Position numbers and translations under genes: made by a program
In this document: in pieces, positions 37,990 through 62,605 of the stretch
How the letters are laid out: every line of letters starts with the position of its first letter
How positions within the stretch are numbered: position 1 is the first letter of the stretch
Assembly (NCBI GenBank): GCA_030068145.1
Contig: JAPJBO010000174.1
Location: 186,001-250,000, forward strand
Source: Diplonema papillatum
Lineage: Eukaryota; Euglenozoa; Diplonemea; Diplonemida; Diplonemidae
DNA: 64,000 nucleotides
Direction: 5' to 3'
Notes under the pieces: model-generated
The model's input: only the letters and a program-made list of their open reading frames with translations
Database searches by the model: none
Told to the model about the DNA's origin: nothing

Positions 37990-39575
37990 GAGGTGAAGTC
38001 CTAAATATGACGTTTGAAACTTTTTTTGCCCATTCTATCACTATTTCAAACTTTTATACCATTCTATTACTACCCCCAAACTTTTATACCATTCTATTAC
38101 TACCCCCAAACTTTTATTCCATTCTATTACTACCCCCAAACTTTTATACCATTCTATTACTACCCCCAAACTTTTATTCCATTCTATTACTACCCCCAAA
38201 CTTTTATACCATTCTATTACTACCCCCAAACTTTTATACCATTCTATTACTATTGCAACTCTGGAGACTGAATTCACCCATTGCTGGCAGCCCTCGGTAC
38301 AAAAACAAGTACATGCTTGTCACAAAAGCCTTGTGCGAGTCTGCCTCTATTCGACTTGGAAGTGAAGTTGCCTCATGATGTAAATGTGTCACATTGTGTG
38401 GACCATTACGCGGTATCCAAACATGAAGGAGACCGGCTTGTAGTATGGTCAAAACTTGAACCCATTACGGTCCCAAAGCTGAACCCCATTCCCAAACTTT
38501 GAACCCATTTTGGTGTCACCCAGTGAGTCGGTCACTGAATTACGTTAGTACAGTGTTAGGAACAGTCACCAAGTCCAGGGTGCCCGACACTTCTACTGTT
38601 TTTCCACTTTCCATCCCCAGCCCCGAGAGCCGCGGGCTTTCCAGGGCTGGGTCCCATTGACAGCCTGGGAACCATTCCCGCAGCATGTACTACGTGTTGC
38701 CCGTAAACGAAACGTAGCCAAGCTCTGCGAGTTGATGTTGCCGACTCAGTTGACATCCTGGCATTCCTGATGACACCTGTTCTGCGAGAACTCTCAAATG
38801 GAATTACCAAAGCCGGTAACCCACATGGAAGGGTTTGTGCTGACTCGCAGGCCCGGGCGGCAGGGTTGTGCAGCAGAGCGCGACTGCGGTGGGCCAAAGA
38901 AACTGACCGATGATTTCTAGCGTTATTTGTGGATTTCACAGCGGCCGGCGACCAGTCTGAGTCGTCGGAGTGGCTGAACGGTCGACCAAATCTTCGGTGG
39001 AACCCTGGGCCGGGCACAGTCGTAGTGGCTTTTGTTCGGCGATATAGCGTAGACTCCAGAATCCAGCACCGTGCTGCGTGCACGCGTACTGACTCGTATC
39101 TGAGCCTGATTAGCGTCAAACTGCGGAACTACAGGATTGGAGTGGGATTCCCACGGAAGCTCCCTCCACAGGGTGGAGTCGGGGCAAAACAGAATGTCGG
39201 GGTCGTCGACTCCGCAAACGAGAGACCGAAACCACTTAGACTCCGTGCTGGCAGTTTGAGATTTCGTCTTTGCTTAGAAACTTGCGGCAAAGCAAAAAGG
39301 GGCCTCTTTGTTTCGTGCGGTGGGACAACGCTTCAACGTTTTCGGTACTGACGCCAAGTGCTGGGGGGGGGATTGAAATAGAATGGTACAAAAGGTCGGG
39401 GATAGTAATAGAATGGTATAAAAACTTGGGGATAGTAATAGAATGGTATAAAAGTTTGGGGATAGTAATAGAATGGTATAAAAGTTTGGGGATAGTAATA
39501 GAATGGTATAAAAGTTTGCGATAGTAATAGAATGGTATAAAAGTTTGGGGATAGTAATAGAAAGTACTTCGCCTC
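37990..39575. mobile_element. S: TIR element with inverted subterminal arrays
   Basis: The ends GAGGTGAAGTCCT and GAGGCGAAGTACT (complement) are flanked by CCACGCAAC at 37981-37989 and 39576-39584. The left array (38040-38265) has seven to eight 30-bp units, ACCATTCTATTACTAC plus a CAAACTTTTAT tail; the right array (39380-39560) is the inverted version with six units. The interior (38277-39356) has no recognisable protein, and carries Y-type words (TTGAACCCATTACGGT, 38456-38500). A 9-bp duplication suggests a Mutator-like transposase acting in trans. Confidence 0.8.
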
Positions 39576-39584
39576 CCACGCAAC

Positions 39585-40348
39585 AGCGCCGCAAAGCGAA
39601 ACAGAGACAAGCAGCAAACTCAAAGGCCCCGGAAGGAAGAACAAAGTAGAGGCAGGCGAAGCGCCCAGCCCCCGCAAACAAAAGTCAGCGAGAGGTAGAC
39701 AGACGACACGCATAGCGCCACCAAACCAGCCCCCCCCGACCGAAGCGGAGGACCGACTCAACAGGCAAACCTGGCACGCCAGGGTTACCAAAAGACGTCA
39801 GAACACCGCACCGGAAAGGGAGGGCGAGCGAAGGACGAAGCCACAACAAAACCAAGGAAAAAAAACCATCACTGCACACAACACGCAGAGCCAAGCAGCA
39901 GATCAGCAGCGAACCAAAGCAACCCTTTTGACAAACTATTATCACAGGCAACTGACTGCACGACAATCGCCGGAAACACACCGACCGCGACTGGTAAAGC
40001 CTGGCACGCCAGGACATCATTACCAGAAGAGCGGCCAAGAACAAGGGGAGGGCGGGCAAGAATCCCACTGAACCCCCCCACAACCATACCAAGAACAAAG
40101 AACGAACCAAAGAAAACAGAAAACAAACAAACGCCCCAAGGATGAAGAGGAGGCACAAGGAACCTTAGCACCGTATCCCCAAGCCTAACCCGGGTGCGGT
40201 TTCCAAATTATTGAGATTGAAATTGAATTTTTCCAACACACCTCGACTCCTGCGACACAAAAGGAAAACAAGCGCGTGGCGTGCCTTCCGGCACAAAGCG
40301 GGCCCAGTAACGCCCCTACCTGCGAGGACACTTGCGGGCGCCTCATGC
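39585..40348. other. spacer before LINE copy 2
   Basis: Purine-rich on the plus strand. The 14-bp near-palindrome CCTGGCACGCCAGG occurs near 39769 and 39999 in otherwise related contexts, suggesting a diverged doublet of about 230 bp. No gene was seen. Confidence 0.4.
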
Positions 40349-40367
40349 AAAAAAAAAAAAAAAAAAA

Positions 40368-42334
40368 GGGTGAAGGCCGGAGCGGACGCGGGAATTCTCG
40401 CCGTCCGTAGGGTGGCGGCCATGTACCGCAGTGAAGGCGGGGCGGGCAAGGGCATCCTCCAGATCGACCTGGCGAACGCATTCAACTCCCTGCAGAGGGA
40501 GGCGATCATTCAAAGCGCCAGCAGGCATGCCCCCCAGGTCTTGGCGTACACCATGGCGGCATACGGGAAGCACTCCATACTGCAAGTTGGAGACCAAACG
40601 CTCACTTCCGAGCGTGGGGTGCAACAGGGGGACCCCTTGGGGCCTCTCCTCTTCAGCCTGGCGCTGCAGGACGTCATCGCGCCGCCGCCGCCGCCGGCCG
40701 AGGCTGCGGCAGCGCCACAGGTCGGCCCGGCAGTCCAGCCGGCGCCGGAAGAGGCCCCGGGGGCGGGCGCTCAGGCTCCGCGGCCGGAGGAGCCCGCGGA
40801 CCCCGCAGGAGCCGTGGAAGGCGGAGAGGGCCCTCCTGAGCAGGGGCCACCGCCACCGCACGAGCCGGGGCCAGCGCAACCGCCACCCGAGGACCCAGCC
40901 CACGGGGGCCCGGCGGAGCCCGGAGAGCCGGCCCTCGCGCCCCCGGGCCCGATTCCGCCGGCGCCGGTGGCCCAGATACCGCGAGGCGCCCCCGAGGATC
41001 CGGAGGGCGCCGGGCCAGTAGCACAGGAGCCGGCACCTCAGGAGCAGCCGGAGGCCGCGCCCAACCACTCAGCGCTGAGCCGGCCCAGCCTCGAGCTCCT
41101 GACGTTCTACCTCGACGACGGGGTAACGGGCGGGGAACTCGACTCGATCGCGCGATGGCTGTGCGAGTTCGAGCGGCGAGCCGCAGCAGTCGGTCTGAGC
41201 CTCAATAGGGGCAAGTGCAGACTGGCGATTGCCCCGGGCGCCGAGGTACCGGCGGGCCTAGACGGCATCGAGACGTGCTCCCTCGATGAGATCGAGCACC
41301 TGGGTGTGCCGTGCGGATCGCCGGAGAAGATCCGCGCGTTCGTTGAGCGGGTGGCACAGGGCGCCGAGAGGAAGCTGAGGGTGATCGCGTCCCTACCTGA
41401 CGCGCACGTGGCGCTCACGCTGACGAAGTTCTGTGCCGGCTTCGTTGGAGTGGTGCACCTCATGCGCGCGACAGGGCCCGTCTTCGACTACGCGGGCATC
41501 GACCGCGTCACCCAGTCCTGTCTCGCGACGATCACCGGGATCGAAACCGATGACGCGTCGTGGACACAGGCGTCACTCCCCGTCAGGATGGGCGGCCTCG
41601 GCCTCCACAGCTGTGCGGACGTGAGCGGGATTGCCCACATCGCCGCGGCGCTGGACGGGGGGCCGCATCTCCCCGCCCTCGTGGCCACGTGGCAGCAGGA
41701 CGACACCGTCCAAGCGTCCCTCGTCGACCCGCGCCTTGCAACCTATGAATCCGTCCTGGAGAAGATCCAGGACGTCATGCAGGCACGAGCCGAGTACGAG
41801 GGGCGAGGACAGAAGGCATGGTCGTCCGCCTTGGCCACCGAGAAGAGGAAGAACCTTCTCGAGTCGCTGACGGAGGAGCTCGGCCACTCCGGCCAACTGC
41901 AGGGTCAGGCCCTGACCCGGGCTCAAGACCGGATCCGGGCGCGGATCCAAAGCGGCTCCGGCAAGCACGCTTCGGCGTGGTTGTACGGCAACCCTGAGGC
42001 GGATACCGCAATGTGGTTGTCTCCGGGCGAGCGGGCGGTGGCAGTCCGGCTTCGGTTGGGGCTTCCAATTGCGGCCGCGCCGGGGGAGTGCCGCCTTTGC
42101 GGACACGGTGCGACCGACGTCAACGGATCGCACGCCCAGACGTGTTTCGGCAGCGGCCGCCGAACGCGCCTTCACAACGCGCTGCGCGACATCGTCGCCG
42201 ACTTCGCTCGACGAGGACTGCTCGGTCCTTCCATCGAGCGAGCCGTGTTCGCTAACGCGCGGCGCAAGCGCCCGGACATCAGCTACGTCCGGGATGGCAC
42301 CACCGTCCTACTTGACGTCGCTGTCACGTACCCC
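40368..42334 (+). CDS. RLE-LINE reverse transcriptase and endonuclease (5' truncated)
   Basis: Begins VKAGADAGILAVRRVAAMYR, inside the RT. Motif A QIDLANAFNSLQRE is near 40461, motif B GVQQGDPLGPLLFSLALQ near 40617, and motif C LLTFYLDDG near 41098. B and C are separated by about 133 residues, mostly Pro, Ala, Glu and Gly, whereas this gap is normally a few tens of residues. A thumb and linker follow, then a zinc knuckle CRLCGHGATDVNGSHAQTC (about 42090) and the PD-(D/E)xK-type motif RPDI with LLDVAVTYP (about 42271-42333), the restriction-like endonuclease that nicks the target. The C-terminal domain continues at 57638. The whole piece is open without internal stops. Confidence 0.92.
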
Positions 42335-44743
42335 GGGACAATTCCCATTATAGTACACTTCCTTATGTTTGTGCCCATTCTCGAACACTATTTAACTTTT
42401 TGCCCTTTCTCGAACACTCGCTAACTTTTTGCCCATTCTCGAACACTTTTTATTTTTTTGCCCAGTCTCGGTAACTTTGTGCCCATTCTCGAACACTATT
42501 TAACGTTTTGCCCATTCTCGAACATTCCAGTTTTTGTGGTGAAAATGTCACTTCCCCGAGACATTTGCCTCAAGTTTCACCGCGAGAACAACTGCGTTCA
42601 CTGATTCGAAGACGGTACCCTTGCTAACTTCAGGCCGCAGCCACTTCGGCATCTACACTCGGGTTCTGGGTTGGGAGAGCTTGGTTGCTTCAAGCTCTTC
42701 TACACGTGACGGTATGCGAGCTACCCCGTAAAAACCCGGCACAGACTTCACTGAGTTTGCTCGTCTTGCTTGCAAATTGCGCGGCAGCCATTGAGTGACC
42801 TTAGTTCACTGACCTACACCAGGAGAAGCAGCTTGCAAACTTTGCAGCAAAGTGATTCAAAAAATTTGACCGAAATTTCTTGGGTCAAAAAATTTCGGTC
42901 AATTTTTGGGTCAAAATTTTTGGACAAAATTTTTGGGTCAAAATTTTTGGTCAAAAATTTTTGGTCAAAAATTTTTGGTCAAAAATTCGGGGTCCAATTT
43001 TTTGGTCAACTTTTTTTCAGAGTTGAAGTGGCAGCGGTTACACTTGGCACATGGCTGCATGATGGCAGGAGAAATGGCTCCTGCCATGCGCCCTGGCGGC
43101 TCGCCGGCAATTCCAGTCTCTCTCTCAGCCTGCCAGCCTGCGGCAGGGAGGACAAGATCCAGTCACCATCCGCCAGCTCCTGATTATTTTCAGACGACTG
43201 GCACTTTTTCTTTGCAGCTTCTACTGTAAGAGTAGCATCACTCAAATCTTGATTGGCTGCGGCGTTACTTACCGCTCTGAGTCTCTCCCGCTCCTCCTCT
43301 GGAGTCATTCGTGACGTCGCGCCCGTCGCTGGTTACTACTCGTGGTAAAACAGTGGCTCTGATTCTGAAGAGGTTTCGGCACAGAATTAGGAAGCGCTAC
43401 AAGTAGAACGGGCTGGTCACTCGCGCATACCTGAATTATGCACGAATCTGTGTGCTCAATGCCTTTAGAAAACCGTTTACCCGTAGTCTGCGGTGTCAAT
43501 GACCTAGTGCGCAACCAGGATACCGAGCCGGGACGCAGCAGCCAACCACAATGCTGGCACCTTGTTCGAGGAACGGATCCGACGGAAATCGGAATCGGAA
43601 ATGGCGAACCCAAAAATGGCTGGGATTTTTTGGATGTATGGGTGGCAGTGTGGCTCCTGGGGCCTGGCGCGTTTGGCGTGGCGTGGCGCGCGCCAAGCGC
43701 GCCAAGCCTGGCGCGTTTGGCGCGGCGCGGCGCGTTTGGCGCACCCTGTAGCCCCAAGGAAATTTAGGCTCCCTCGTCACATGCACGGGGCAAAAAGAGT
43801 GCCTCGGGGGAATTGATAATTTTCCCGGGCCATTTTCCAATGCACAAACAGTGGAATCTGGGTCTGGCAAAAGTTGTGGTGATATTTTCCCGCTGGTCCA
43901 CGTAGCAGATCTTTTTCAACGACGTTTTGCTCGCCCTCAGCTCCGATGAAGAGAACGGTTCAAAATAGACTCGGGGACCCATACGTATGTGTGTGGTTCG
44001 TGACTCCTCATAAGATGCAGAGCACCGGGCGGCAGGTTTACCACGGGAAGGACAGGAATCGTCCCCAGGTAGGTGACAATTTCCCGCTGGTCCACGTAGC
44101 AACTTTTTCCCGACGACTTTTTGCTCGATTTTTTCTCGGATGAAGAGAACGGTGCCAAATAGACCCGGAACCGTAAGTGGATCCCTGTGGTTCGTCGGCC
44201 TTGCATTGCCGCAGGGTACCATGGAATACCGTGGCGAACACGTCCAAACCGGTCCAAAAACGCTGCTTGCAGGGATCGATCCCCTGGAAAAAGCTTGTTT
44301 TTCAGTGGCTCTGGAAGGACACAGGGGTGTGGGAAGGCACCAGAATAGGTTGACACCTTCTGAGAACAGGTTCTCTGGAAGATTTCGTCATCGATCTTCT
44401 CATCGAAGAAAAAATTTGTCGGAACGCACGCCGGGATCGCAGAGAAAATGGACGAATGATGAACCCAAAATGAAAAGGTTGTCAATTCCTGGTGAAACCA
44501 CTAAGGGCGCGCCAATCGCGCCAAACGCGCCAAACGCGCCAGAAAACAGGGTTTTCTGGCGCGGCCTGGCGCGGCTGGCGCAGGAGCCACACTGTGGGTG
44601 GTGAGTTCGAATCCCACCCTGGGCAATTTTCAATGTTCGAGAATGGGCAAAAAGTTAAAAAGTGTTCGAGAATGGGCAAAACGTTAGCGAGTGTTCGAGA
44701 ATGGGCAAAAAGTTAAATTGTGTTCGAGAATGGGAATTAGCCC
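42335..44743 (+). mobile_element. X1: TIR element inserted in LINE copy 2
   Basis: Ends GGGACAATTCCCATTATAGT and the complement of GGGGCTAATTCCCATTCTCG-type sequence, flanked by CACGTACCCC at 42325-42334 and 44744-44753. The subterminal arrays at both ends are of GCCCATTCTCGAACAC with TTTAACTTTTT tails, inverted relative to each other. The interior has a GGTCAAAAATTT-type array (42850-43010) and a tRNA-like B box (GTTCGAATCC, about 44608). No transposase. It is longer than X2 and X3 only because V is inserted in it. Confidence 0.88.
43646..44594. mobile_element. V: hAT-like element inside X1, carrying satellite units
   Basis: TIR CAGTGTGGCTCCTG at both ends, flanked by TGGGTGG at 43639-43645 and 44595-44601. 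X2 and X3 show the site without it. The subterminal regions are GGCGCG-rich (43665-43750 and 44508-44580). The interior holds about two units of the same satellite that fills U (GATGAAGAGAACGG, CAAAATAGAC, AGAGCACCGGGC). U and V thus belong to one family of satellite-carrying elements. Confidence 0.85.
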
Positions 44744-44898
44744 CACGTACCCCCTACAACTCTCGCAGCGGGCTGGTGCCCATTACAGCACGGTTTTGTT
44801 AGATTTGCCCATTACAGCACGGTCTTCCTTAGATTTGCCCATTCGGTGTTTTCGAGTGCCCATTACAGCACGGTTTTCTTAGATTTGCCCATTTGGTG

Positions 44899-46334
44899 GG
44901 GACAATTCCCATTATAGTACACTTCCTTATGTTTGTGCCCATTCTCGAACACTATTTAACTTTTTGCCCATTCTCGAACACTCGCTAACTTTTTGCCCAT
45001 TCTCGAACACTTTTTAACTTTTTGCCCATTCTCGGTAACTTTGTGCCCATTCTCGAACACTATTTAACTTTTTGCCCATTCTCGAACATTCCAGTTTTTG
45101 TGGTGAAAATGTCACTTCCCCGAGACATTTGCCTCAAGTTTCACCGCGAGAACAGCTGCGTTCACTGATTCGAAGACGGTACCCTTGCTAACTTCAGGCC
45201 GCAGCCTCTTGGGCATCTAAACTCGGGTTCTTGGTTGCTTCAAGCTCTTCTACACGTGACGGTGGTGTGCGAGCTACCCCGTTTAAAAACCCGGCACAGA
45301 CTTCACTGAGTTTGCTCGTCTTGCTTGCAAATTGCGCGGCGGCCATTGAGTGACCTTAGTTTGCAGCAAAGTGATTCAAAAAATTTGACCGAAAATTTTT
45401 GGGTCAAAATTTTTCGGTCAATTTTTCGGTCAAATTTTTTGGGTCAAAAATTTAGGACAAAATTTTTGGGTCAAAAATTTTGGGTCAAAAATTTAGGACA
45501 AAATTTTTGGGTCAAATTTTTTGGTCAAAAATTCGGGGTCCAATTTTTTTTCCGAGTTGAAGTGGCAGCGGTTACACTTGGCACATGGCTGCATGATGGC
45601 AGGAGAAATGGCTCCTGCCATGCGCCCTGGCGGCTCGCCGGCAATTCCAGTCTCTCTCTCAGCCTGCCAGCCTGCGGCAGGGAGGACAAGATCCAGTCAC
45701 CATCCGCCAGCTCCTGATTATTTTCAGACGACTGGCACTTTTTCTTTGCAGCTGTAAGAGTAGCATCACTCAAATCTTGATTGGCTGCGGCGTTCGCTCT
45801 GAGTCTCTCCCGCTCCTCCTCTGGGGTCATTCGTGACGTCGCGCCCGTCGCTGGTTACTACTCGTGGTAAAACAGTGGCTCTGATTCTGAAGAGGTTTCG
45901 GCACAGAATTAGGAAGCGCTACAAGTAGAACGGGCTGGTCACTCGCGCATACCTGAATTATGCACGAATCTGTGTGCACAATGCCTTTAGAAACCCGTTT
46001 ACCCGTAGCCTGCGGTGTCAATGACCCAGTGCGCAGCCAGTATACCGAGCCGGGACGCAGCAGCCAAAATGCTGGCACCTTGTTCGAGGAACGGATCCGA
46101 CGGAAATCGGAATCGGAAATGGCGAACCCAAAAATGGCTGGGATTTTTTGGATGTCTTGGTGGTGAGTTCGAATCCCACCCTGGGCAAATTTCAATGTTC
46201 GAGAATGGGCAAAAAGTTAGGCGACTGTTCGAGAATGGGCAAAAGTTAAAAAGTGTTCGAGAATGGGCAAAAAGTTAGCGAGTGTTCGAGAATGGGCAAA
46301 AAGTTAAATTGTGTTCGAGAATGGGAATTAGCCC
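44899..46334 (+). mobile_element. X2: X-family element in the left arm of Z
   Basis: Same ends and arrays as X1, flanked by CATTTGGTG at 44890-44898 and 46335-46343. It lacks V. GTTCGAATCC B box at about 46168. The right arm of Z retains the unoccupied equivalent of this site. Confidence 0.88.
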
Positions 46335-46343
46335 CATTTGGTG

Positions 46344-47408
46344 CCTCAAAAAGTGTCACTCGCGGGATTGGCTTTTTTTGAACCCGAAAAAGTGTCACAT
46401 GCAGGACTCGAACTCACGACCTTCAGACCTTCCTCTGCGTTGTGACGGTGACATCCACATTTTGGACGATGGACAATGGGCTGTCACCGGGCATAGCTGT
46501 CAGCCACATTGTGGCCCATTTGACCACAAAGTAGCCACAACCTTGTGGCTACCTTTGTGGCCAGGTGGACACCTTCAGTCTGTCAGAAGTTCAGATGAGG
46601 TTGACGGGTTTTAGGGCCAGCATTTGGGCCAGCTGCTACGCCGTTTCTGGCTGAAATTCTGCTGGACCACGTCGCCGGCCAAGACTGAAAGAAAATGGCA
46701 GTTGTTGTCAACATTCATCCAAAATTCCGGGCCAAATCATCCCAATGTCACCTTCGTAGTGGCCGCACGCTTCGCGTGTTCCGCGCACTTTTGACGAGCA
46801 CGTGCCGCAGCGACGATGTAGTGACACACTGCAGGCGCAGCGACGCATTCCGTTCGCATCCCGCATCCACCCGAATGATGAGAGTCCGAATCAGCTACCA
46901 GCTCAGCTGGAACTGTCAATTTCATCTCTGAAATCTTTCTCCCTACAACACACAGGAACGTGTGCACAAGGTCAAACAGCTTAGGTTTTAGGTTCAAGTT
47001 TTGGGTTCTTTTGGTTCCCGGTTTTGGCACCATTTGGGTCCAAGTTTTGGGTCCTTTCAAGTTGCGGCCCCTTCGCCAGGCTGACGTTGCACGCATTTTC
47101 TGCGGAGCAAAAACTCTCGCCATTTTCACCGCCCCCTGCCAGCTTCGACCATACCTTTTCTTTGCAGCTTTCTAGTATGATTCAAATCGGACTGGCTGCT
47201 GTGGTACTTTACCGCTCTCTGCAGCGGTCTCGAGGTCGCTGGTTCTGAAGAGGCTATCGGACAGAAATCGTAAGAAGAAGTGGAAGTTGTACTACAGAAC
47301 TGTAGAACGGGTCTGTCACCCGCGCGAAGTGAATTATGCACGAATCTGTGCATAATTCCTACTACTACCGGGACAAGCGGGTCGGCCGCGGGACCACCGA
47401 ACGGTGAA
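46344..47408. repeat. left inverted arm of Z
   Basis: Reverse-complement partner of 56054-55632 plus 50614-50150. It includes a tRNA-like B box (complement GTTCGAGTCCTGC, about 46401-46416), the unoccupied APE-LINE target GCACGCTTCGCG (about 46766), GGGTCC/CAAGTTTT iterations (46985-47060) and a block (47255-47408) repeated at 49740-49900. No protein was recognised. Confidence 0.8.
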
Positions 47409-47418
47409 CGTGCAAGCA

Positions 47419-49168
47419 GGGCCAAAACCCATTACAGTATGTTATCCAAACTTTGAACCCATTACGGTACATGATCCAAACTTTGAACCCATTACGGTAT
47501 GGTGCCAAACTTTGAACCCATTACGGTATGGTTTTCCAAACTTTGAACGAATTACGGTAGGTTCCAAACTTTGAAACCCATTACGGTATGGTTTTCAAAC
47601 TTTGAACGAATTCGGTAAGTGTAAAATTTGAGCCCAATTTCGGTACCGTTGTCAGTCGAGGTCTGCAAGTTGTTAACAACGCAATGTAATTGGGCGACAA
47701 ATTCATCTTCTGTGGTCATGCTGGCCGAGCGGCTGTGTGCTGTTGCTACAGCTGTAGTAAACCTCGTGATCAGCAGGCACTGAAACCTACGGCCACGTCC
47801 GGATTGTGATTGGACCGGAAGAAGAGTCATGCTCATCGAGCTGCTTGCCACTTAGCCGCACCGTTGCGACAAATTTAAGAACAAAGTTCACAATCAGAAA
47901 CGAAAGGTAAACCTGATCATTGTGGACGCATTTTGGGAAGCTTTGGAACGTTCGCGCCATTCGCAGATGATTCTGTCCATCGCTTGCGTCAACAGGAAGG
48001 CAAAAAGAGAGAGATGAGGAGGAGGAAGGGAAAACTTCATGATCAGCAGTGAAAGTTGGCAGGCACTGCCCCTACTGTAGTACGGCGACCTCGGAAGCTC
48101 AGTGGAGTACTCTTCTCCCTGTTGCGAAAGCAGGATCCCTACCGACAGCGTAGGAGAGGAATAACCACCGACGGCCCATTACAGGGGGGGGGCTAAATAC
48201 AAAGAGCGCCCGTTGTATTCAAAGCGTCAAGCTCAAAATGCAGGTTCGCGGCAGAACGTGGTCTTCGAACACAACTGTTTTTCCATGCTAATCAACCGTG
48301 GGATTCTGCCCCCGTACAGAGGGAGCAGTTTTCGAGCAGCATTTGATACTTCGCAGTCGGTCTGAGTCCGCGACTCTGACTCCGCGAGCGGCAGGCCGTC
48401 ACTGGATCCGGAAGTAGCAGCGGCGTTTCAGCCACAGGGTCGACTCGAGCGTGAATCGGACAAGCCGAATCGGAAGTGGACTCGTCGGGACCTCCTCCCA
48501 TGAAGTCTGATGACGAGTGACGGAGGGCCCGGACCGCCGTCCGACCTGCTGGACAGGGAAGGAAGGCATTGGACCGGACCCCGGGGTGGGCGGATCGGGG
48601 GCGAGTGCGCCGCAATGGTGGTTGCCATGCACCGACTCTTCTTCAAACCCGAGCACTTCCCCTGGGGATGCATCTGTGCGAGGTCCTTCAGAAATCGAGA
48701 GGTCCAAAGCAAGCAGCCAACCTCGAGCATGTGCCAAAAGACACAAACTGGATCCATCGACGCCAACTTCACATCTATGATCTCTCTCCACGTCCGCTTC
48801 TACGTATCTCGTTGGTGTTGGGCTTATAACCTGACAGTGACACCGAAATGCTCAAACTTGAGAGTCAAAGTTTAGAAATCATGCCGGAATTGGTTCAAAT
48901 TTGGAACCTCACCGTAATGGGTTCAAAGTTTGAAAACCATACCGTAATGGGTTCAAAGTTTGAAAACCATACCGTAATGGGTTCAAAGTTTGGGACCATA
49001 CCGTAATGGGTTTCAAAGTTTGGAACCTACCGTAATTCGTTCAAAGTTTGAAAATCCATACCGTAATGGGTTCAAAGTTTGGATTGACATACCGTAATGG
49101 GTTCAAAGTTCGGACCATACTGTAATTCGTTCAAAGTTTGGATAACATACTGTAATGGGTTTTGGCCC
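47419..49168. mobile_element. Y: TIR element with perfect 40-bp ends inside Z
   Basis: The TIR begins GGGCCAAAACCCATTACAGT and is identical at both ends for about 40 bp. It is flanked by CGTGCAAGCA at 47409-47418 and 49169-49178, and an unoccupied copy of the site lies near 49900-49909. The arrays of ACCCATTACGGTATGG with CAAACTTTG tails at 47440-47640 and 48880-49150 are inverted. The interior (47650-48870) has no recognised gene. The perfect TIRs suggest fairly recent insertion. Confidence 0.92.
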
Positions 49169-50150: not shown

Positions 50151-50680
50151 AACCAGCGACCTCGAGACCGCTGCAGAGAGCGGTAAAGTACCACAGCAGC
50201 CAGTCCGATTTGAATGATACTACTAGTAGAAAGCTGCAAAGAAAAGGTACGGTCGAAGCTGGCAGGGGGCGGTGAAAATGGCGAGGGGTTTTGCTCCGCA
50301 GAAAATGCGTGCAACGTCAGCCTGGCGAAGGGGCCGCAACTTGAAGGACCCAAAACTTGGACCCAAATGGTGCCAAAACCGGGAACCAAATTGAGAACCC
50401 ACTAAGCTCGGATCCAGACCCAAAACTTGACAGTCACACTGACTAATGGGTAGCTGATTCGGACTCTCATCATTCGGGTGGATGCGGGATGCGAACGGAA
50501 TGCGTCGCTGCGCCTGCAGTGTGTCACTACATCGTCGTGCAAGGCGGTCACCGCCGCGGTGAGTGGAGAGCTTCGGAGTGCGTGCTCGTCTGCGCGGAAC
50601 ACGCGAAGCGTGCGTATAAGTCGATCTTTGAGTGCGTGAGCCCCTCCGAAGAAAGGTCCATCGCACTAGTTCCAAGCTAC

Positions 50681-53600
50681 TTAGCCCGGGTCTCTGGGTC
50701 GCGTCCCCCTCCTTCTTTTGGTCGCCTGGTCCTGCGTCTTGTTGGTCCGTCCGGGCTGGGGGCTTCGCGCTTCCCCTTCGTCTTGCATCACCTCGTCTCC
50801 ACTCCCTGCCGCACGGGCTCCTACGTTTTGTGCCACCTGCGACGCGGGTCGCTTTACTGCTCTTCTGCGCGACGGCTGCTCTGTACTCGTTGCCTTATCC
50901 GCGATTGCCGCTTCTCGTACCGACCGCGCCTGCCTTTCCTGTTCTGCCTTTCGCCTCTGTGGTCCGTCGGCCGCCTCAGCTCGGGCGTCCTGCTGTGCTG
51001 TCTGGATCTCCTCGTCTTCCTTCTTACGTTGCTTGGCACTCCGTGCCGCCCGCGTCGCTTGCGGCGCGGGCCTCTTCAGAGCCGGTCGTCCTCGTGCGCG
51101 CTGTTCCGCCTTCGTATCCTGGTTCGCGCCCTCTGCCTCCGGCGCACCTCTTGACACTTCCTTGCCCTGGGCGGTGTTCCTCTTCGAGCTCCTCCCTCCT
51201 CGTCCCGCCTGATTCTCCTGTTCCGCTAAGGTGAACCACTTCTGGGCCCGTCGCCCCCTTTCCTCGTCCGATGGGTACCACTTTTTGAAATCGAATTTTC
51301 CTAGTCTCTCCCCGTCTTCCCTGCGCTCTGTTTGTACCTTTCCGTGTTCTGCCTTCGTGTACTCTCCTGCCGACACCTCGAGCCCTCGTAGCGCTTGCAG
51401 GGTATCTCTGCCCAGGATACAGCGCCTCTCCAGACCCTCCGTCCACCGTCCTGACGCGCCGAGCCGCCGCAGCCAACCTATTGATTTCTTTCTTGCCGGC
51501 AAAAGCTCCCCATCGTGGGTTCCTTGGAGCGTCTTGAGCATCCCCAACAGCGTCCTCATTTTTCCCGCGAGCGCAGCTCCTCCATGCGCTTCCCTTTTCT
51601 GGCCTGCGTCCTCCTCTCCGTCCTCTGCGTCTTCCGGCCCAACCGCCTTCTGTCCGCGTCGCGGCAGGTCCATTCCGGATTCGACTTCAAAGTCCACGGC
51701 GAGTTCTATGAACGTCACCGCCATCTCTTCCTCGCTCTTGGCCCAACGCAGTGTCGCCAGCCATTGCGCCAGCGCTAAGTATAGCGCCCTTCCATGCTTC
51801 CAGTTTCTGGGCATGTAGTCCGCCAGTGAATTCTGGATCACTTCCGTCTCCTGCGGCGCCCACTCCCAAGGATATGCAAGCCCACGTCCGTCGCTTTCCC
51901 GCTGCACCGGCTTCTTGTCCCTCCTCTGCCTCTCCAGGGTGATCTGGACCATCATGCCCTGCACACTGTTGACAAGTTGGCGCGTCAAGCCCCTGCAGAC
52001 CCATGCCCCTGCTCCTTCACCTCCTCTCTCTTTCTTCGGTTTGATCCCGCAAACGGACATACACTTCGGCCATTTCTGCCATTCTAGCGCGGTTACCGCA
52101 TACGTCGTTCGTATGGCGTCCCACTCTCCACATCGCCACCACATGTGTAGGTGGTCCTCGTCTTCCTTTCCGCAGTACTTGCACGTTGCGCTCGGTTGCA
52201 TCTTCCGTTGGTGCAACCGCGTCTGCGGCAGCACTGCATCCGCCATGATGTGCCTGAGCACACCTCGTTCATACGCGCTAAGGTTGACGGCAGTCGCTCC
52301 GCGCTCTTCCCTAGCCTCCCCTTTCCCGCGCCCTACTTCCAGCAGTCGCAGCGTTGCGTTGCGGTCCACGCCCTCACCAATCCCTTCCAGGTTCTTCCTG
52401 TCGATGTTCCGCCACCGCCAGAGCCTCAGGGCTTCGCGCGCCAGGTGCCCCAGCTCCTTGAGGTCGTCCAGTGTCCTCAGATCGACTTCCTTCCCTCGCC
52501 CGTCGCCCGTCTCCGTCTCGTCTGTATGGTCGTCGGGAATTCGGATCGACCACGGTCCCGTCCTTTGCCACTTCATGGCCTCTAACGTCCCGTCAAGCAA
52601 GTGTACCGGCCCCGAGGTGCTCGGGCAGGGAAAGACGCGGGCCGCCGCTTGCATGTGCGCCCTACACCTCTCCGAGTCCTTCATCAGCGCCATCCACGTC
52701 ATGACTCGTCGGTAGTGCACGGCCACCGGTGGATCCACCAAGTGACCCTTCCTCACGAGCGAGAGGCTAATCGCGGCGCAACGTCCCCGCCTATCCCTAC
52801 CTGCAAGTCCCCTTTCAATTGCAGCTGTCAACTGTGCGAGCCACTTCTTCTCCGGCTCCTGTACCTCTACCCCGTAAATTGCCTTCGGGATCACGACCGA
52901 AGCGTAGATCCTCTCCTTCTTCTCCTGCGGCAGGGGTAACTTGCCCGCCCTCTTCGCGATTTTGGACGCCTCGTCCAACCTGCTCGACAAGACCTTCTGG
53001 GCGCCTCCGTCGGTACCCAAACCTGCCCCCAAGCACTTCAACCACGCCACCTTCTCGACCTCCTGGCCGGCTATCCGAGGGTTGGCCTCGGCTTCGCTCT
53101 CCCGCTTTCTCTTCCTACCGCCCTCCTCCTCGTCCGGCGGACGCTTAGCCCTCACTACCGTCCATTTGCTCTTGCGGGCGTTGGGTCGCTGACCCGTGTC
53201 GCCGCAAAACTCCTCCGTCAGAGCCACTGCCCGCGTCAAATCCGGCTTCGTCCTCGTCACGACCTCGGTGTCATCCGCAAATGCTTGCGGTTCGGCCCCC
53301 GGGACCTCCTCTTCAACGAGATACATCCAGACCGACACGAGCGCGTTCAGGAAGATTACGCTCAGCGGACAGCCCTGCAGAATCCCGTTCGTCGCCTTGA
53401 ACTCCTTCCCCAGCCCCGCCGGAAGCTTGAACCGTCGCCTCAGCTGGCGGTACATGCCCCGCACTGCATTCAACACTGATGGCGGCAGTCCCATGTCTTC
53501 CACAAGCTTCAACATGATCTCCTGCGGTATGCGGTCAAAACATTTGCTGTAGTCGAACGCCACGGCGAAAAGATCCTCGTCGTTCAGCAGAGCCGCTTCC

Positions 53601-55630
53601 ATCTTCGCCGCCAAGAGCCAGTACACCTCCTGCGTCCTTCCCTTCTTCCTGAAACCGCGTTGATCGGGGTGCGCCCACGATTCTTGCCATTCCCTCACGA
53701 AACGGAGGCGCGTCGCCGCCCAGAGGCGGTACATAACGCTCGTTATCGTGATCGGGCGTTGCTCGAGAGGCTGCGGACCCTCCCCCTTCGGGATCAACAC
53801 CACCAGCGCCTGCGCCACCACCTCGGGCCAGCTGCCGGCCCCCTCCACGTCGTTCAGCGCCAGCGCAATCACGTCGAGGAGAGGCACCGGCAGCGTCTTC
53901 AACTCGCACACTCGCCAGCCGTCCATCCCCCCGGCTTTCCGCGCCTTCATCTTCTTCAGCGTCGCGCTCAGGTCTTCTCCGGTCAACGGGCGGTCCTCGC
54001 AAGCTCCCCTCTTCACGTACTTGCCATACCTTCGCACGAAGTCCTCCCACTTCGGCTCCCGTACCTCCTTGTACATCTGGAACACGCCTCCCCACGCCTT
54101 CTCGCCTCGCAGGATCTCATCCATCTCATGGAGATCGGCGGTCACCGACCCATCTCCCCTCTCGACGAACAGGGTGCTGTGCCTCTCCGGCTGCTTGCAC
54201 CAGTCGTAGACACGCTTGGGGTTGTCGTCGATCGCCCGACGCATCTCCCCCCTCCACGTTTCCAGCCTTTTTGTTCTCCTCGCCGCCCGCGTCCTTTCGT
54301 GCTCCTTCTTCAACATGCCGCAGAGCGCCTGCAGCTCAGGCAGTGCAGGCGGGTTCGCCTCCTCCCACAGGCGCGAATCAACGTGCTTGACGCCCGCCCT
54401 GCGGGCTTTTCTCCACACTCTCATCTCCTCCGTGCTCGGCTGGCCGCAGGTGTCCCGCTTCTCTCCCAGCCGCACCAGCTCCTCGAGTCTTCTGCAGGAG
54501 CCGAGTCTCGCCCTCGTGTCCCGGTCATCCGCATCCGCCTCTCCGTCAACTTGCCTCGCCGCAGGGCTGCGCACGCACTCTCCCGCCTGCTGCCCTCTCC
54601 CGACGTATTGGCGCGGCTTCTCCAGTAGCCCTCCACTCCTCTCCAGCAGGTACTGTTCTGCAGCATCGCACACCGTCTTCCATTTCGCGTCGACCCCCTG
54701 CGCGGCTCGATACCGGTGTGCAGCTTCCTTGGCCCATTTCTCCGCCATGCCGAATTCCTCCTCGGGGTCCATCGCGCTCCAATCTGCGACAGGGAAGGCC
54801 CTCGGTAGCTTCAGTTGCGGGTAGCGCTGCTCCAACCGCTCGAGATCCAGCCTCACCACGACTGGCCTGTGAGTCGGTATCGACTCGGCTGTCAGTACGT
54901 TCACCCCCGATATCGCCACTGCCGCCACCGAGTTCGCGAATATCGCGTCTATACGCCTTCCTTTCTTCGACGCCATGCACGTGGCCGCAGGTTGTTGGGC
55001 GTACTGCTTGGCCCACGTACTGCCGACATCGACCCACTTCCCGGATTGGACGGCTGCGTTCAAAATCGGGCTTTCCTCGGGCTCGACGTTGAAGTCCCCC
55101 GCGATGAGAATTGGCACGTCCCCTAGGGTGGCCGCGTAGCTGAGGGTATCCGCCAGGATCTCCTCCGTTGCGTCCTCATCTGACACGACCCCGTAGATCG
55201 ACATCATGGAGAGGCTCCTCCTCCCGTCCCCGTACGCCACCTGTGCGTGCGCAAATCTACCCTTCTCCCAATGTCGCTTCGTCAGTTCCCCCGGCGGAAC
55301 CGCGCGCGCGGGCAGTTCGGTCGCCGCGGAGAACGCTACTCCCCCGTACTCCGTCCGCAAAGCCGTCTTTATCCGAGTCTGGCCCTGCATGCGTCCCCAA
55401 ACCAGCCTCTTCCCTCTACTTCGGGCTTCCCCCTCCGCCTGGGCCCTGTCCCTCTCGCACACCCTCACCTCTTGCAAAGCTAGCAAATCCACCTTCCTTC
55501 CCCAGGCTTCCATTGTGTGGACTTCTGGGTGCGCGAGCAAGGACGTGACATTGGCGGAGGCGGCGATCAGCCCTGTCACCGCCGGTCCCGGATTCTCGTG
55601 CACATCCCCGCACGTCAGCAGAGATCCCCT
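50681..55630 (-). CDS. APE-LINE ORF: 2A, AP endonuclease, reverse transcriptase, zinc knuckle
   Basis: About 1,650 codons, open throughout. It opens with RGSLLTCGDVHENPGP. Counting from the V of DVHENPGP, the AP endonuclease spans about 12-250 (ASANVTSLL, LLALQEVRV, ILIAGDFNVEPEES at about 172, RIDAIFAN, SIPTHRPVVV at about 243). RT motif A is FAVAFDYSKCFDRIPQE (about 684), B GILQGCPLSVIFLNALV (about 743), C AFADDTEVV (about 776). A zinc knuckle CKYCGKEDEDHLHMWWRC lies at about 1143. From about 1480 the tail is basic and disordered, with repeated (K)RPA motifs (ALKRPAPQA, AVKRPASQV) that look like nuclear-localisation signals. No ATG precedes the 2A: the frame meets TAG 18 nt upstream of the element. 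The first internal Met would cut off the endonuclease start. Confidence 0.93.
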   Translation of the reverse strand, partial: RGSLLTCGDVHENPGPAVTGLIAASANVTSLLAHPEVHTMEAWGRKVDLLALQEVRVCERDRAQAEGEARSRGKRLVWGRMQGQTRIKTALRTEYGGVAFSAATELPARAVPPGELTKRHWEKGRFAHAQVAYGDGRRSLSMMSIYGVVSDEDATEEILADTLSYAATLGDVPILIAGDFNVEPEESPILNAAVQSGKWVDVGSTWAKQYAQQPAATCMASKKGRRIDAIFANSVAAVAISGVNVLTAESIPTHRPVVVRLDLERLEQRYPQLKLPRAFPVADWSAMDPEEEFGMAEKWAKEAAHRYRAAQGVDAKWKTVCDAAEQYLLERSGGLLEKPRQYVGRGQQAGECVRSPAARQVDGEADADDRDTRARLGSCRRLEELVRLGEKRDTCGQPSTEEMRVWRKARRAGVKHVDSRLWEEANPPALPELQALCGMLKKEHERTRAARRTKRLETWRGEMRRAIDDNPKRVYDWCKQPERHSTLFVERGDGSVTADLHEMDEILRGEKAWGGVFQMYKEVREPKWEDFVRRYGKYVKRGACEDRPLTGEDLSATLKKMKARKAGGMDGWRVCELKTLPVPLLDVIALALNDVEGAGSWPEVVAQALVVLIPKGEGPQPLEQRPITITSVMYRLWAATRLRFVREWQESWAHPDQRGFRKKGRTQEVYWLLAAKMEAALLNDEDLFAVAFDYSKCFDRIPQEIMLKLVEDMGLPPSVLNAVRGMYRQLRRRFKLPAGLGKEFKATNGILQGCPLSVIFLNALVSVWMYLVEEEVPGAEPQAFADDTEVVTRTKPDLTRAVALTEEFCGDTGQRPNARKSKWTVVRAKRPPDEEEGGRKRKRESEAEANPRIAGQEVEKVAWLKCLGAGLGTDGGAQKVLSSRLDEASKIAKRAGKLPLPQEKKERIYASVVIPKAIYGVEVQEPEKKWLAQLTAAIERGLAGRDRRGRCAAISLSLVRKGHLVDPPVAVHYRRVMTWMALMKDSERCRAHMQAAARVFPCPSTSGPVHLLDGTLEAMKWQRTGPWSIRIPDDHTDETETGDGRGKEVDLRTLDDLKELGHLAREALRLWRWRNIDRKNLEGIGEGVDRNATLRLLEVGRGKGEAREERGATAVNLSAYERGVLRHIMADAVLPQTRLHQRKMQPSATCKYCGKEDEDHLHMWWRCGEWDAIRTTYAVTALEWQKWPKCMSVCGIKPKKERGGEGAGAWVCRGLTRQLVNSVQGMMVQITLERQRRDKKPVQRESDGRGLAYPWEWAPQETEVIQNSLADYMPRNWKHGRALYLALAQWLATLRWAKSEEEMAVTFIELAVDFEVESGMDLPRRGQKAVGPEDAEDGEEDAGQKREAHGGAALAGKMRTLLGMLKTLQGTHDGELLPARKKSIGWLRRLGASGRWTEGLERRCILGRDTLQALRGLEVSAGEYTKAEHGKVQTERREDGERLGKFDFKKWYPSDEERGRRAQKWFTLAEQENQAGRGGRSSKRNTAQGKEVSRGAPEAEGANQDTKAEQRARGRPALKRPAPQATRAARSAKQRKKEDEEIQTAQQDARAEAADGPQRRKAEQERQARSVREAAIADKATSTEQPSRRRAVKRPASQVAQNVGARAAGSGDEVMQDEGEARSPQPGRTNKTQDQATKRRRGTRPRDPG

Positions 55631-55631
55631 T
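55583..55631 (-). other. T2A-like ribosome-skipping peptide at the LINE 5' end
   Basis: RGSLLTCGDVHENPGP differs from the Thosea asigna virus 2A core (RGSLLTCGDVEENPGP) by one residue, His for Glu. The element's first base lies one nucleotide before the Arg codon. Confidence 0.9.
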
Positions 55632-55644
55632 CGCGAAGCGTGCG

Positions 55645-56064
55645 GCCACTACGAAGGTGACATTGGGATTATTTGGCCCGGAATTTTGGATGACAACAAC
55701 TGCCATTTTCTTCTCAGTCTTGGCCGGCGACGTGGTTCAGCAGAATTTCAGCCAGAAACGGCGTAGCAGCTGTAACAGCTGGCCCAAAAGCTGGCCCTAA
55801 AACCCGTCAACCTCATCTGAACTTCTGACAGACTGAAGGTGTCCACCTGGCCACAAAGGTAGCCACAAGGTTGGCTACTTTGTGGTCAAATGGGCCACAA
55901 TGTGGCTGACAGCTATGCCCGGTGACAGCCCATTGTCCATCGTCCAAAATGTGGATGTCACCGTCACAACGCAGAGGAAGGTCTGAAGGTCGTGAGTTCG
56001 AGTCCTGCATGTGACACTTTTTCGGGTTCAAAAAAAGCCAATCCCGCAAGTGACACTTTTTGAG
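55645..56064. repeat. right inverted arm of Z (between APE LINE and X3)
   Basis: Reverse complement of 46335-46770. It includes GTGGCTACTTTGTGG-type inverted words and the B-box sequence GTTCGAGTCCTGC (about 55996). Confidence 0.8.
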
Positions 56065-57487
56065 GGGCTAATTCCCATTCTCGAACACAATTTAACTTTT
56101 TGCCCATTCTCGAACACTCGCTAACTTTTTGCCCATTCTCGAACACTTTTTAACTTTTTGCCCATTCTCGAACAGTCGCCTAACTTTTTGCCCATTCTCG
56201 AACATTGAAATTTGCCCAGGGTGGGATTCGAACTCACCACCCATACATCCAAAAAATCCCAGCCATTTTTGGGTTCGCCATTTCCGATTCCGATTTCCGT
56301 CGGATCCGTTCCTCGAACAAGGTGCCAGCATTGTGGTTGGCTGCTGCGTCCCGGCTCGGTATCCTGGTTGCGCACTGGGTCATTGACACCGCAGACTACG
56401 GGTAAACGGTTTTCTAAACACAGATTCGTGCATAATTCAGGTATGCGCGAGTGACCAGCCCGTTCTACTTGTAGCGCTTCCTAATTCTGTGCCGAAACCT
56501 CTTCAGAATCAGAGCCACTGTTTTACCACGAGTAGTAACCAGCGACGGGCGCGACGTCACGAATGACTCCAGAGGAGGAGCGGGAGAGACTCAGAGCGGT
56601 AAGTAACGCCGCAGCCAATCAAGATTTGAGTGATGCTACTCTTACAGTAGAAGCTGCAAAGAAAAAGTGCCAGTCGTCTGAAAATAATCAGGAGCTGGCG
56701 GATGGTGACTGGATCTTGTCCTCCCTGCCGCAGGCTGGCAGGCTGAGAGAGAGACTGGAATTGCCGGCGAGCCGCCAGGGCGCATGGCAGGAGCCATTTC
56801 TCCTGCCATCATGCAGCCATGTGCCAAGTGTAACCGCTGCCACTTCAACTCTGAAAAAAAGTTGACCAAAAAAATTGGACCCCGAATTTTTGACCAAAAA
56901 TTTTTGACCAAAAATTTTGACCCAAAAATTGACCGAAATTTTTTGACCCAAAAAATTTCGGTCAATTTTTTTGAATCACTTTGCTGCAAAGTTTGCAAGC
57001 TGCTTCTCCTGGTGTAGGTCAGTGAACTAAGGTCACTCAATGGCCGCCGCGCAATTTGCAAGCAAGACGAGCAAACTCAGTGAAGTCTGTGCCGGGTTTT
57101 TAAACGGGGTAGCTCGCACACCACCGTCACGTGTAGAAGAGCTTGAAGCAACCAAGAACCCGAGTGTAGATGCCGAAGAGGCTGCGGCCTGAAGTTAGCA
57201 AGGGTACCGTCTTCGAATCAGTGAACGCAGCTGTTCTCGCGGTGAAACTTGAGGCAAATGTCTCGGGGAAGTGACATTTTCACCACAAAAACTGGAATGT
57301 TCGAGAATGGGCAAAACGTTAAATAGTGTTCGAGAATGGGCACAAAGTTACCGAGAATGGGCAAAAAGTTAAAAAGTGTTCGAGAATGGGCAAAAAGTTA
57401 GCGAGTGTTCGAGAATGGGCAAAAAGTTAAATAGTGTTCGAGAATGGGCACAAACATAAGGAAGTGTACTATAATGGGAATTGTCCC
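56065..57487 (-). mobile_element. X3: X-family element in the right arm of Z
   Basis: Same ends as X1 and X2, opposite strand, flanked by ACTTTTTGAG at 56055-56064 and 57488-57497. It lacks V. The left arm of Z has the unoccupied site. Relative to Z's ends it has the same orientation as X2. Confidence 0.9.
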
Positions 57488-57637
57488 ACTTTTTGAGGCA
57501 CCGAATGGGCAAATCTAACAAAACCGTGCTGTAATGGGCACTCGAAAACACCGAATGGGCAAATCTAAGGAAGACCGTGCTGTAATGGGCAAATCTAACA
57601 AAACCGTGCTGTAATGGGCACCAGCCCCTCTCGCAGC

Positions 57638-58148: not shown

Positions 58149-58153
58149 CGGCA

Positions 58154-58226
58154 GCCCCGTTGGCGCAACGGATAGCGCGTTGGACTTCTAATCCAAAGGT
58201 TGTGGGTTCGAATCCCACACGGGGTA
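58154..58226 (+). tRNA. tRNA-Arg (anticodon TCT)
   Basis: 73 nt, no intron. Acceptor GCCCCGT/ACGGGGT (first pair G-T), anticodon arm TTGGA-CTTCTAA-TCCAA with TCT, T arm GTGGG-TTCGAAT-CCCAC, discriminator A. A box TGGCGCAACGG and B box GGTTCGAATCC fit the Pol III promoter consensus. It decodes AGA, and TTTT at 58228 would end transcription. All stems pair, so it looks functional. Confidence 0.95.
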
Positions 58227-58227
58227 G

Positions 58228-61320: not shown

Positions 61321-61680
61321 GGTTCATCCTGCCAGTAGTCATATGCTTGTTTCAAGCATTACGCCATGCAAGTCTCCGAGTAAATGGATCAACAGTGGGT
61401 CTGCAGACGGCTCATGAAATTGGTGGCAATCTACGGGGAAGGGGCCTTTTGGGCCCAGTTGGATAACAATGGTAACTCCATTGCTTATACATGTCCGAAG
61501 AATCCAACTCGAGTCACGCGGGGTCGAGGTGGATACACTTGACCGAGATTAGAACCAACGCTAGCAATAGCAGCGGTGTGTGGATGAAACAGGTCAATCA
61601 GATAGTACACGACCAAGTCGGTGCAACCCTGCAAGAGCTTCTGCCCTACCCGCACAAAGACGTTCGAAGTTTTGGAGAGG
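61321..61680 (+). rRNA. 5' part of an 18S rRNA-like sequence (fragment, divergent)
   Basis: Starts GGTTCATCCTGCCAGTAGTC then ATATGCTTGTTTCAA, nearly identical to the universal 5' end of 18S. Further anchors in the right order are GCCATGCAAGTCTC, GACGGCTCATGAAA, GGATAACAATGGTAACTCCA, CTTATACATG, TTAGAACCAACGC and TTCTGCCCTACC. Between anchors it is strongly divergent. About the first 350 nt of a molecule of about 1.8 kb is present. It is either a displaced pseudogene of a fast-evolving rRNA or a foreign piece. Confidence 0.75.
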
Positions 61681-62605
61681 AACTTCCCGCGTGCGCTAGG
61701 GCAGTGTTCTACACGACGCACTAGTTATGAGGTTTCACTAGTTATTAACTAGCTCAATAGTGAAATTTAAAACTTGCTCGGGGTATGAAGTTCTAAGTTT
61801 TTGCCCATAACGGTATGAAGTTCTGAGTTTTTGCCCATAACGGTATAGTCACTAAGTTTTTGCCCATAACGGTATGGTCGCTAAGTTTTTGCCCATAACG
61901 GTATGGAAATCCAAGTTTTTGCCCATAACGGTTCCACACTTCCTGTGTGGATTTTGGGTCCTTGCTTTGGGGTCGAAGTTTTGGCCAAACTTGTGCCACG
62001 ACCCAAACTTGGACCCACACAAGTTTTGAGTCCAAGTATTGGGTCAAGTTTTGACTCCAAGTTTTGGGTCCAAGTATTGGGTCCAAGTTTTGGGTCCAAG
62101 TATTGGGTTCAAATTTGTGGGTCCAGTTTGGCTCGATTTTTGGTTCAAGGTTTGGGTCCAAATTTTGGACCAACTTTTCCGCACGTTGGCGTGAAAAGCT
62201 CCTTCTTACTTTTCATGCTCGATCTCTGATGATGTGGACGGGCGACCAGTAACCCAACGTCACCCGGCCATGCGCGCACTACCGAGCAACGACTTCGAGC
62301 TGAGTCTCCAAAAAGTTTGAAACCTCATTTTCGTGCATGTTGTATAATTCCGGTGTTGTCCCGCAAAATCTAGAGAGATCGGAATTTGATCAGCGGGTGG
62401 ATGGAAGTTCCTGTTGGCAGAATTGAACTGCGGAAAACACAACAGAAATTGCCACATTGAACAGCTAAAGGCTTCAAGTAACCTGTCTTCTCCCAACATA
62501 CCCAGAACAGCCGCCCGCACGCGTCAACGGGCCACACAGCTGTAGTCAAGATTGTAATCAAATCAAACTTGAAACATACAGTCTGCGGTGTTGCACATAC
62601 ATCCG
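61681..62605. repeat. Q: CCCATAACGG array and GGGTCCAAGTTTT array
   Basis: 61795-61930 holds five units of about 29 bp, GCCCATAACGGTATGG with CTAAGTTTTT tails. 61960-62170 holds GGGTCCAAGTTTT iterations. This matches one end of a Y/Z-type element. An opposite end and duplication were not found, so it is probably truncated. 62180-62605 shows nothing recognisable. Confidence 0.6.

What the first reader, a model, noticed from the sequence alone, without database searches (positions are those of the whole stretch)
37990..62170. One iterated unit of about 30 bp unites six TIR-element families
X, Y, Z, S, T and Q all carry subterminal arrays with a period of 29-30 bp. The unit has a CCCATTA-type head and an AAACTTT-type tail: X GCCCATTCTCGAACAC/TTTAACTTTTT, Y ACCCATTACGGTATGG/CAAACTTTG, Z GCCCATTACAGCACGG/GTTAGATTT, Q GCCCATAACGGTATGG/CTAAGTTTTT, S ACCATTCTATTACTAC/CAAACTTTTAT, T GCCCTTATATCCCGG/CAAAACAAATTTG. 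Where both ends are present the arrays are inverted. The termini of X, Y, Z and T also align (GG[GT]..AAT.CCCATTA.AG), and the duplications are 9-10 bp. This looks like a superfamily whose transposase reads a helically phased array (30 bp is about three turns). The families differ in unit sequence, as if site and transposase co-evolve. The duplication length suggests Mutator-like transposases, but no transposase is in the window.
Basis: partly seen in the sequence, partly recalled or inferred. Interest (0 to 1): 0.88.

Follow-up and report, generated by a model that had tools for sequence, protein, structure and literature searches.

The report
Mutator-type transposons with 29-bp end arrays
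The repeated ~30-letter units at the ends of these elements belong to Mutator-type jumping genes of the marine protist Diplonema papillatum; the arrays look like rows of docking sites for the elements' own transposases, and site and enzyme seem to have diverged together.

Summary
The observation largely holds. The window is from Diplonema papillatum. All 14 TRF arrays of period 29-32 (>=2.5 copies) in it carry a CCCAT/CCATT/CCCTTA-type head and lie at ends of X, Y, Z, S, T or Q. X1-X3, Y, Z, S and a T copy have exact 9- or 10-bp target duplications. Elsewhere in the genome, elements with X, Y, Z and T ends hold MULE (Mutator-superfamily) ORFs. Of 12 MULE ORFs examined, 10 have an array on at least one side; L063 and L064 show none in the stretch fetched. 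The plan is a 7-9 bp cap, then 29-32 bp units. The unit is one homologous sequence in one transposase clade and in Q; S and T are weak; G1 has the plan with an unrelated unit. Unit and transposase distances correlate. Helical phasing fails at 10.5 bp/turn. S and Q have no known transposase; most ORFs were found through the MULE domain, so other transposases could have been missed. Binding is inferred. Tandem end arrays are known in Mutator elements; this is a new variant.

The parts
37990..39575 (.). Element S (non-autonomous, 1586 bp), ends GAGGYGAAG, inverted 30-bp arrays about 38017-38256 and 39368-39563, 9-bp target duplication CCACGCAAC
   Evidence: the right-end matches elsewhere in the genome stop at the same end
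42335..44743 (+). Element X1 (2409 bp), ends GGGACAAT / GGGCTAAT, 29-bp arrays, duplication CACGTACCCC
44770..57627 (.). Element Z (12858 bp with nested inserts X2, Y, X3 and a LINE-type retroelement), ends GGGCTGG+TGCCCATTACAGCACGG, duplication CTCTCGCAGC
44899..46334 (+). Element X2 (1436 bp), inserted in Z, duplication CATTTGGTG; left array spacings 29,29,29,29,21,29
47419..49168 (.). Element Y (1750 bp), ends GGGCCAA+AACCCATTACAGTATG, 29/30-bp arrays, duplication CGTGCAAGCA
   Evidence: pre-insertion relative 49870-49969
56065..57487 (-). Element X3 (1423 bp), inserted in Z, duplication ACTTTTTGAG
61782..61932 (+). Q array (29/30-bp units TGCCCATAACGGTATGG...), one-sided, cap missing; followed by 13-bp repeats
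   Evidence: Q ends with cap GGGCTGA in L067
15872..17087 (.). T copy (1216 bp), ends GGTAAATA / GGTGTAA, duplication TATGTTCAA; only one or two units per end
26990..29855 (-). Second T copy (left limit approximate): left end without its cap, right array of 32-bp units, right cap GGTAAATT
40169..42424 (+). [not shown]
50681..55648 (-). LINE-type ORF (endonuclease, reverse transcriptase) inserted in the right arm of Z
   Evidence: insert boundary read by eye

Best explanation
These are non-autonomous members of a radiation of Mutator-like (MULE) cut-and-paste transposons in Diplonema papillatum. Each end is a 7-9 bp cap, probably the cleavage end, followed without a gap by a few to about a dozen copies of a 29-32 bp unit pointing inward. 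Each unit is most likely one docking site for the family's own transposase, read by a zinc-finger-like domain near its N terminus. Several transposase molecules per end would bring the two ends together, and insertion makes a 9-10 bp stagger. Families diverge as unit and transposase change together, so non-autonomous copies follow the transposase whose site they carry. Shown: ends, arrays, duplications, transposase ORFs, correlation of the distances. Inferred: binding, synapsis, trans-mobilisation, site isolation.
For: Elements with these ends and a MULE ORF between them: X in L012 (754 aa), Y in L060 (756 aa), Z in L059 (832 aa), X' in L061 (747 aa), N in L062 (773 aa), T in L074/L065 (585 aa, plus a 286-aa ORF in another frame), W in L075/L066 (566 aa). 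X', Y, Z and N have exact 9-10 bp duplications and X one with a single mismatch; G1 has ATATTTATA. PF10551 is over its cut-off in 10 of 10 transposase ORFs scanned, and in the X' and W matches. D226, D290, C311, H314 and E401 are invariant in 12 of 12 aligned ORFs. MURA of maize binds a conserved ~32 bp motif, about one unit long (PMC3310237, passages seen).
Against: No binding or transposition data. The flanks of the autonomous T agree in only 7 of 9 bases (read by eye). The T copy at 15872-17087 moved, by its exact duplication, with only one or two units per end, so a long array is not required for every family. Spacings vary (21, 28-31; some heads in Y and N are degenerate). No transposase was found for S or Q. 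L063 and L064 showed no array in 4.8 kb, though their ends were not located. The correlation of unit and transposase is also expected from co-descent alone, and I chose the units by eye.
Confidence: 0.73

Rival explanations
1. The arrays are by-products: minisatellite growth by slippage and unequal exchange at fold-back ends, of which only the outermost unit or two matter to the transposase.
For: Q-type units also occur as long satellite-like runs (for example C806:79125-85890); 13-bp repeats next to the arrays expand too; unit numbers differ between copies; the T copy at 15872-17087 has one or two units per end yet an exact duplication. A fold-back element gave rise to a satellite in Drosophila virilis (Tetris, PMC4079207; search listing only).
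Against: Inward arrays stand at both ends of X, X', Y, Z, N, S, W, Q and G1 copies in which both sides were read, in both transposase clades, and wherever the cap was read the first unit starts 7-9 bp from the end (in S by an alignment made by eye).
Confidence: 0.19
2. The architecture in clade A, in T and in G1 arose separately (convergence), so the finding merges two or three unrelated unit families.
For: G1 units are no closer to clade A units than shuffles (78 to 669 of 1000 shuffles reach the score); T against clade A is marginal (4 to 71) and the T-like G3 unit also (13 to 196) (first listed unit of each family). The two clades are far apart in the tree.
Against: Cap, start of unit 1 directly after the cap, unit length and 9-bp duplication are shared; the caps GGGATAAT (G1) and GGGCTAAT (X) differ in one base; T's terminal bases align with N and X by eye.
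Confidence: 0.35
3. The arrays are regulatory (promoters or chromatin marks) rather than transposition sites.
For: Long Mutator TIRs hold promoters as well as binding sites (PMC3310237, passages seen).
Against: Copies without a transposase ORF keep arrays at both ends (X2, Y, S).
Confidence: 0.08

Closest known systems
Muta1 and Muta5, Mutator-like elements of Aedes aegypti (PMC5225508; passages seen)
   Same: MULE transposase, 8-9 bp duplications, terminal motif followed by a tandem array (9 copies), many non-autonomous copies; ten of twelve long-TIR families there have such repeats
   Different: Units of 12 and 15 bp (9-15 bp overall) against 29-32 bp here
Tm1 of root-knot nematodes, Mutator/Foldback (PMC3169594; passages seen)
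   Same: Composite inverted ends with variable numbers of tandem units, 9-bp duplications, Phantom-like transposase
   Different: 13-15 bp unit; asymmetric 7-bp end motifs
Maize MuDR/Mu (PMC3310237; passages seen)
   Same: MURA binds a conserved ~32 bp motif in the TIR; 9-11 bp duplication
   Different: As recalled, one such motif per TIR, not an array
Rehavkus (PMC6446971; passages seen)
   Same: 9-bp duplication, minisatellite near one end
   Different: PHD finger in the transposase; none matched here

Membership tests
MULE / Mutator superfamily | MULE transposase domain | tested here: met
   PF10551 above cut-off in 10 of 10 transposase ORFs scanned: X, Y, Z, N, L063, L064, G2, G1, G3, T; X' and W lie at matches that are over the cut-off. 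The ORFs were mostly found through this domain
MULE / Mutator superfamily | DDE triad with C(2)H between second D and E | tested here: met
   D226, D290, C311, H314, E401 invariant in 12 of 12 aligned ORFs; that these columns are the triad and motif is recalled, not from a call
MULE / Mutator superfamily | Target duplication of 8-11 bp | tested here: met
   9 or 10 bp, exact, in X1, X2, X3, Y, Z, S and a T copy and in autonomous X', Y, Z, N; autonomous X one mismatch; autonomous T 7 of 9 only; X copies 16 of 18 that could be judged
MULE / Mutator superfamily | S and Q carry a MULE transposase | tested here: inconclusive
   S pairs span 1.6-2.7 kb (coordinates); the 4.9 kb Q candidate L067 has no ORF over 225 aa
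Foldback-type composite ends | Inverted ends made of tandem units | tested here: met
Rehavkus | PHD finger in transposase | tested here: not met
   no PHD family in the Pfam scans at E <= 0.01
   Phase concentration at 10.5 bp/turn 0.07-0.40 in 8 arrays (X, X', Y, Z), P 0.45-0.96 against random spacings
Transposase-binding array | Units bound by the cognate transposase | not testable with these tools
   needs protein-DNA binding data

The most novel reading that the evidence does not exclude
Two deeply split MULE clades in one genome (about 20-25% transposase identity) keep one end plan, a cap abutting an iterated ~30 bp docking site, while each family's unit and transposase have changed together. 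That makes a natural series in which transposase families became mutually isolated by re-tuning an array of sites, with a conserved 21-bp short unit (X, X', and a different one in Z) as an architectural element inside the array.
Probability: 0.42. Interest if true: 0.66.

Novelty: new variant of a known kind. Interest (0 to 1): 0.52.

Why it matters
It assigns several abundant repeats of a diplonemid genome to one transposon radiation whose ends the genome paper did not describe in the passages I saw (PMC10161547). It also offers about ten transposase/site pairs in one species, a ready set for testing how a transposase and its repeated binding site diverge together and how non-autonomous elements find their helper.

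Tried and rejected
Helical phasing: rejected at 10.4-10.55 bp/turn. A period near 9.8 bp fits the spacings (0.85-0.96 in all 8 arrays), but it is neither free nor nucleosomal DNA as I know them, so I make nothing of it.

Autonomous S: 18 pairs of left and right ends that I matched by eye from the coordinates (40 best candidates each, of 201 and 319) span 1.6-2.7 kb; none is long enough for a MULE ORF of the kind found here, and none lies at a match. Autonomous Q: L067 (4.9 kb between inverted arrays) has no ORF over 225 aa and no matching duplication by eye.

Preference of X for other elements' arrays: 8 of 16 X insertions have two or more heads within 60 bp of the empty site, against 5.8% of random positions. 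I do not rely on it, because the query carried 19 bases of Z flank and so favoured such copies; one of the 8 (X1) counts only because Z lies next to it.

Homologues outside Diplonema: two protein searches gave P0001 (Diplonema) and one plant protein at 23% identity; only about 8000 word-sharing candidates were scored each time, so absence elsewhere is not shown.

Literature on diplonemid Mutator elements: one search listed 15 of 1,219 papers, with the genome paper the only one naming Diplonema; the 10 of 829 listed do not contain 'diplonemid'. Supplements and other journals were not searched.

The search of the own genome by protein (Y transposase) did not complete, so the number of MULE lineages is not known; the matches beyond the loci named here were not examined.

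Full report
Host and setting. The window is contig C174:186001-250000 of a 271 Mb, 2910-contig genome. The X transposase found below is 100% identical over 98% of its stop-to-stop ORF to P0001, named as a Diplonema papillatum protein whose longest contig has the length of contig C489. [quoted passage not shown] the passages I saw describe no ends.

Observation. Autocorrelation of 15 hand-marked arrays: 12 exceed all 300 dinucleotide shuffles at a lag of 29-32; Z_L only ties at lag 29 (its best lag is 51), Z_R and T_L do not exceed. TRF finds 17 arrays of period 27-34 with at least 2.5 copies in the window, overlapping rows collapsed; the 14 of period 29-32 all have the head word and all sit at ends of the named families. 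Exact duplications of 9 or 10 bp flank X1, X2, X3, Y, Z, S and a T copy at 15872-17087. The retroelement ORF that X1 and Z interrupt reads on in one frame across both empty sites. X copies: of 20 loci fetched, 15 show paired ends (16 elements), and with three in the window there are 19; 16 have a duplication (two with one mismatch), 2 have none, and 1 could not be judged because the contig ends; pairings of ends that belong to different elements were dropped. Lengths are 9 bp in nine and 10 bp in seven.

Anatomy. Cut at the head, the ends that I could read consist of cap plus units. Caps: X GGGACAAT and GGGCTAAT; X' GGGCTAAT; Y GGGCCAA; Z GGGCTGG; N GGGTCATT and GAGTCAAT; W GGGCCAAT (left only); Q GGGCTGA; T GGTGTAA and GGTAAATT; G3 GGTGTAA (one side); G1 GGGCTTTT and GGGATAAT; S GAGGTGAAG and GAGGCGAAG, where the first unit is degenerate and placed by eye. 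G2 shows no cap. Spacings are mostly 28-31; values of 57-60 in Y and N are two units with a degenerate head between them. One 21-bp unit stands in the left X array (unit 5), in both X' arrays (units 4 and 5) and in both Z arrays (unit 3). The X and X' 21-bp units are nearly identical (TGCCCATTCTCGRTAACTTTG; one copy ends TGTG) although their ordinary units differ; the Z one is different. I have no explanation. In T some units are reversed, so its ends contain short palindromes, and the T copy at 15872-17087 has one or two units per end.

Transposases. PF10551 gives 150 scored matches of 245 candidates in the genome. One X-ended element of 3508 bp (L012) holds a 754-aa MULE ORF. So 10 of the 12 MULE ORFs in alignment A2 have units on at least one side. 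L063 and L064 have none in 4.8 kb; L064 is nearly identical to T in protein, and I did not find out why it lacks ends. These ORFs were mostly reached through the MULE domain, so the set says little about elements with other transposases.

Relations. Y, Z, N and X' are 40-72% identical to X. T against Y is 25% over 422 aa, E 9e-19; clade B members are 20-25% identical to X. The tree has two strongly supported groups: A (X, X', G2, Y, Z, W, N) and B (T, G3, L064, G1, L063); the place of G1 within B is unsupported and the plant outgroup sits on a long branch. Invariant columns include D226, D290, C311, H314 and E401, which I read by recall as the MULE catalytic triad and C(2)H motif; C68, C78, H102 and C104 are invariant or nearly so, which I read by recall as a WRKY/GCM-type zinc finger.

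Are the units one unit? Shuffle tests with the first listed unit of each family, uncorrected: the 21 clade-A pairs are each reached by at most 25 of 1000 shuffles; Q by 0 of 1000 against six of seven clade-A families and 151 against N; S by 2 to 428; T by 4 to 71; G3 by 13 to 196; G1 by 78 to 669. So homology of the unit is supported in clade A and for Q, is weak for S and T, and is not seen for G1. Distances of units and transposases correlate (10 families r 0.80, 1 of 20000 permutations; clade A r 0.63, 79 of 5040). The units were picked by hand and the smallest distance was used; co-descent alone predicts a correlation.

Phasing. Heads are not on one helical face: concentration 0.07-0.40 at 10.5 bp/turn, P 0.45-0.96, in eight arrays of X, X', Y and Z.

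Mechanism. Each unit is about as long as the ~32 bp motif that MURA binds (PMC3310237, passages). Together with arrays at both ends of copies that have no transposase ORF this favours rows of transposase docking sites. Tandem end arrays are known from Muta1 and Muta5 and Tm1 with units of 12-15 bp, so this is a variant of a known kind: a longer unit, abutting the cap, kept across a whole radiation. Growth into satellite-like runs (Q units) shows that unit number is also driven by turnover, which is the main rival for array length.

Open points. S and Q have no known transposase; the duplication of the autonomous T is imperfect although the window copy's is exact; nothing here measures binding.

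Noticed in passing
L041/L069 (C1218) and L042/L077 (C1987): A MULE ORF of the X-like G2 lineage is followed 38 bases on, same strand, by an ORF with a YTDTDS motif and a weak endonuclease VII match just under its cut-off (a B-type DNA polymerase by recall). The junction is the same in two contigs, no array lies between, and the PF03175 search did not list either place. It may be a virus-like neighbour or a composite element.
   Followed up: partly
G000:C806:79125-85890, C274:38477-40784, C443:5097-6293: Matches to Q-type 30-bp units tile satellite-like stretches of 1.2 to 6.8 kb (list cut).
   Followed up: no
L022:1334-4378: A 31-bp tandem array of 98 copies without the head word.
   Followed up: no
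L017, L019, L022, L026, L027; L021, L028: A further 29-bp unit family, TACCATTCTCACACAGTCGCAACAAATG (back-to-back inverted arrays in L019 and L026); and in L021/L028 a 30-bp unit GCATATATTTGTAAAAAACAGTTTTTTCGC.
   Followed up: no
window 61372-61677: Partial eukaryotic small-subunit rRNA (model positions 57-388 of 1831) just before the Q array.
   Followed up: no
window 58154-58226: tRNA-Arg (TCT), found by ARAGORN and Rfam.
   Followed up: no
window 14537-16040 and 28235-29738: A 1504-bp perfect inverted duplication that includes one end of the T copy at 15872.
   Followed up: no
L012, L065, L067 and window 42873-43016, 45392-45549, 62020-62168: Runs of ~13-bp repeats (GGGTCCAAGTTTT type) lie just inside or beside many of the arrays.
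   Followed up: partly
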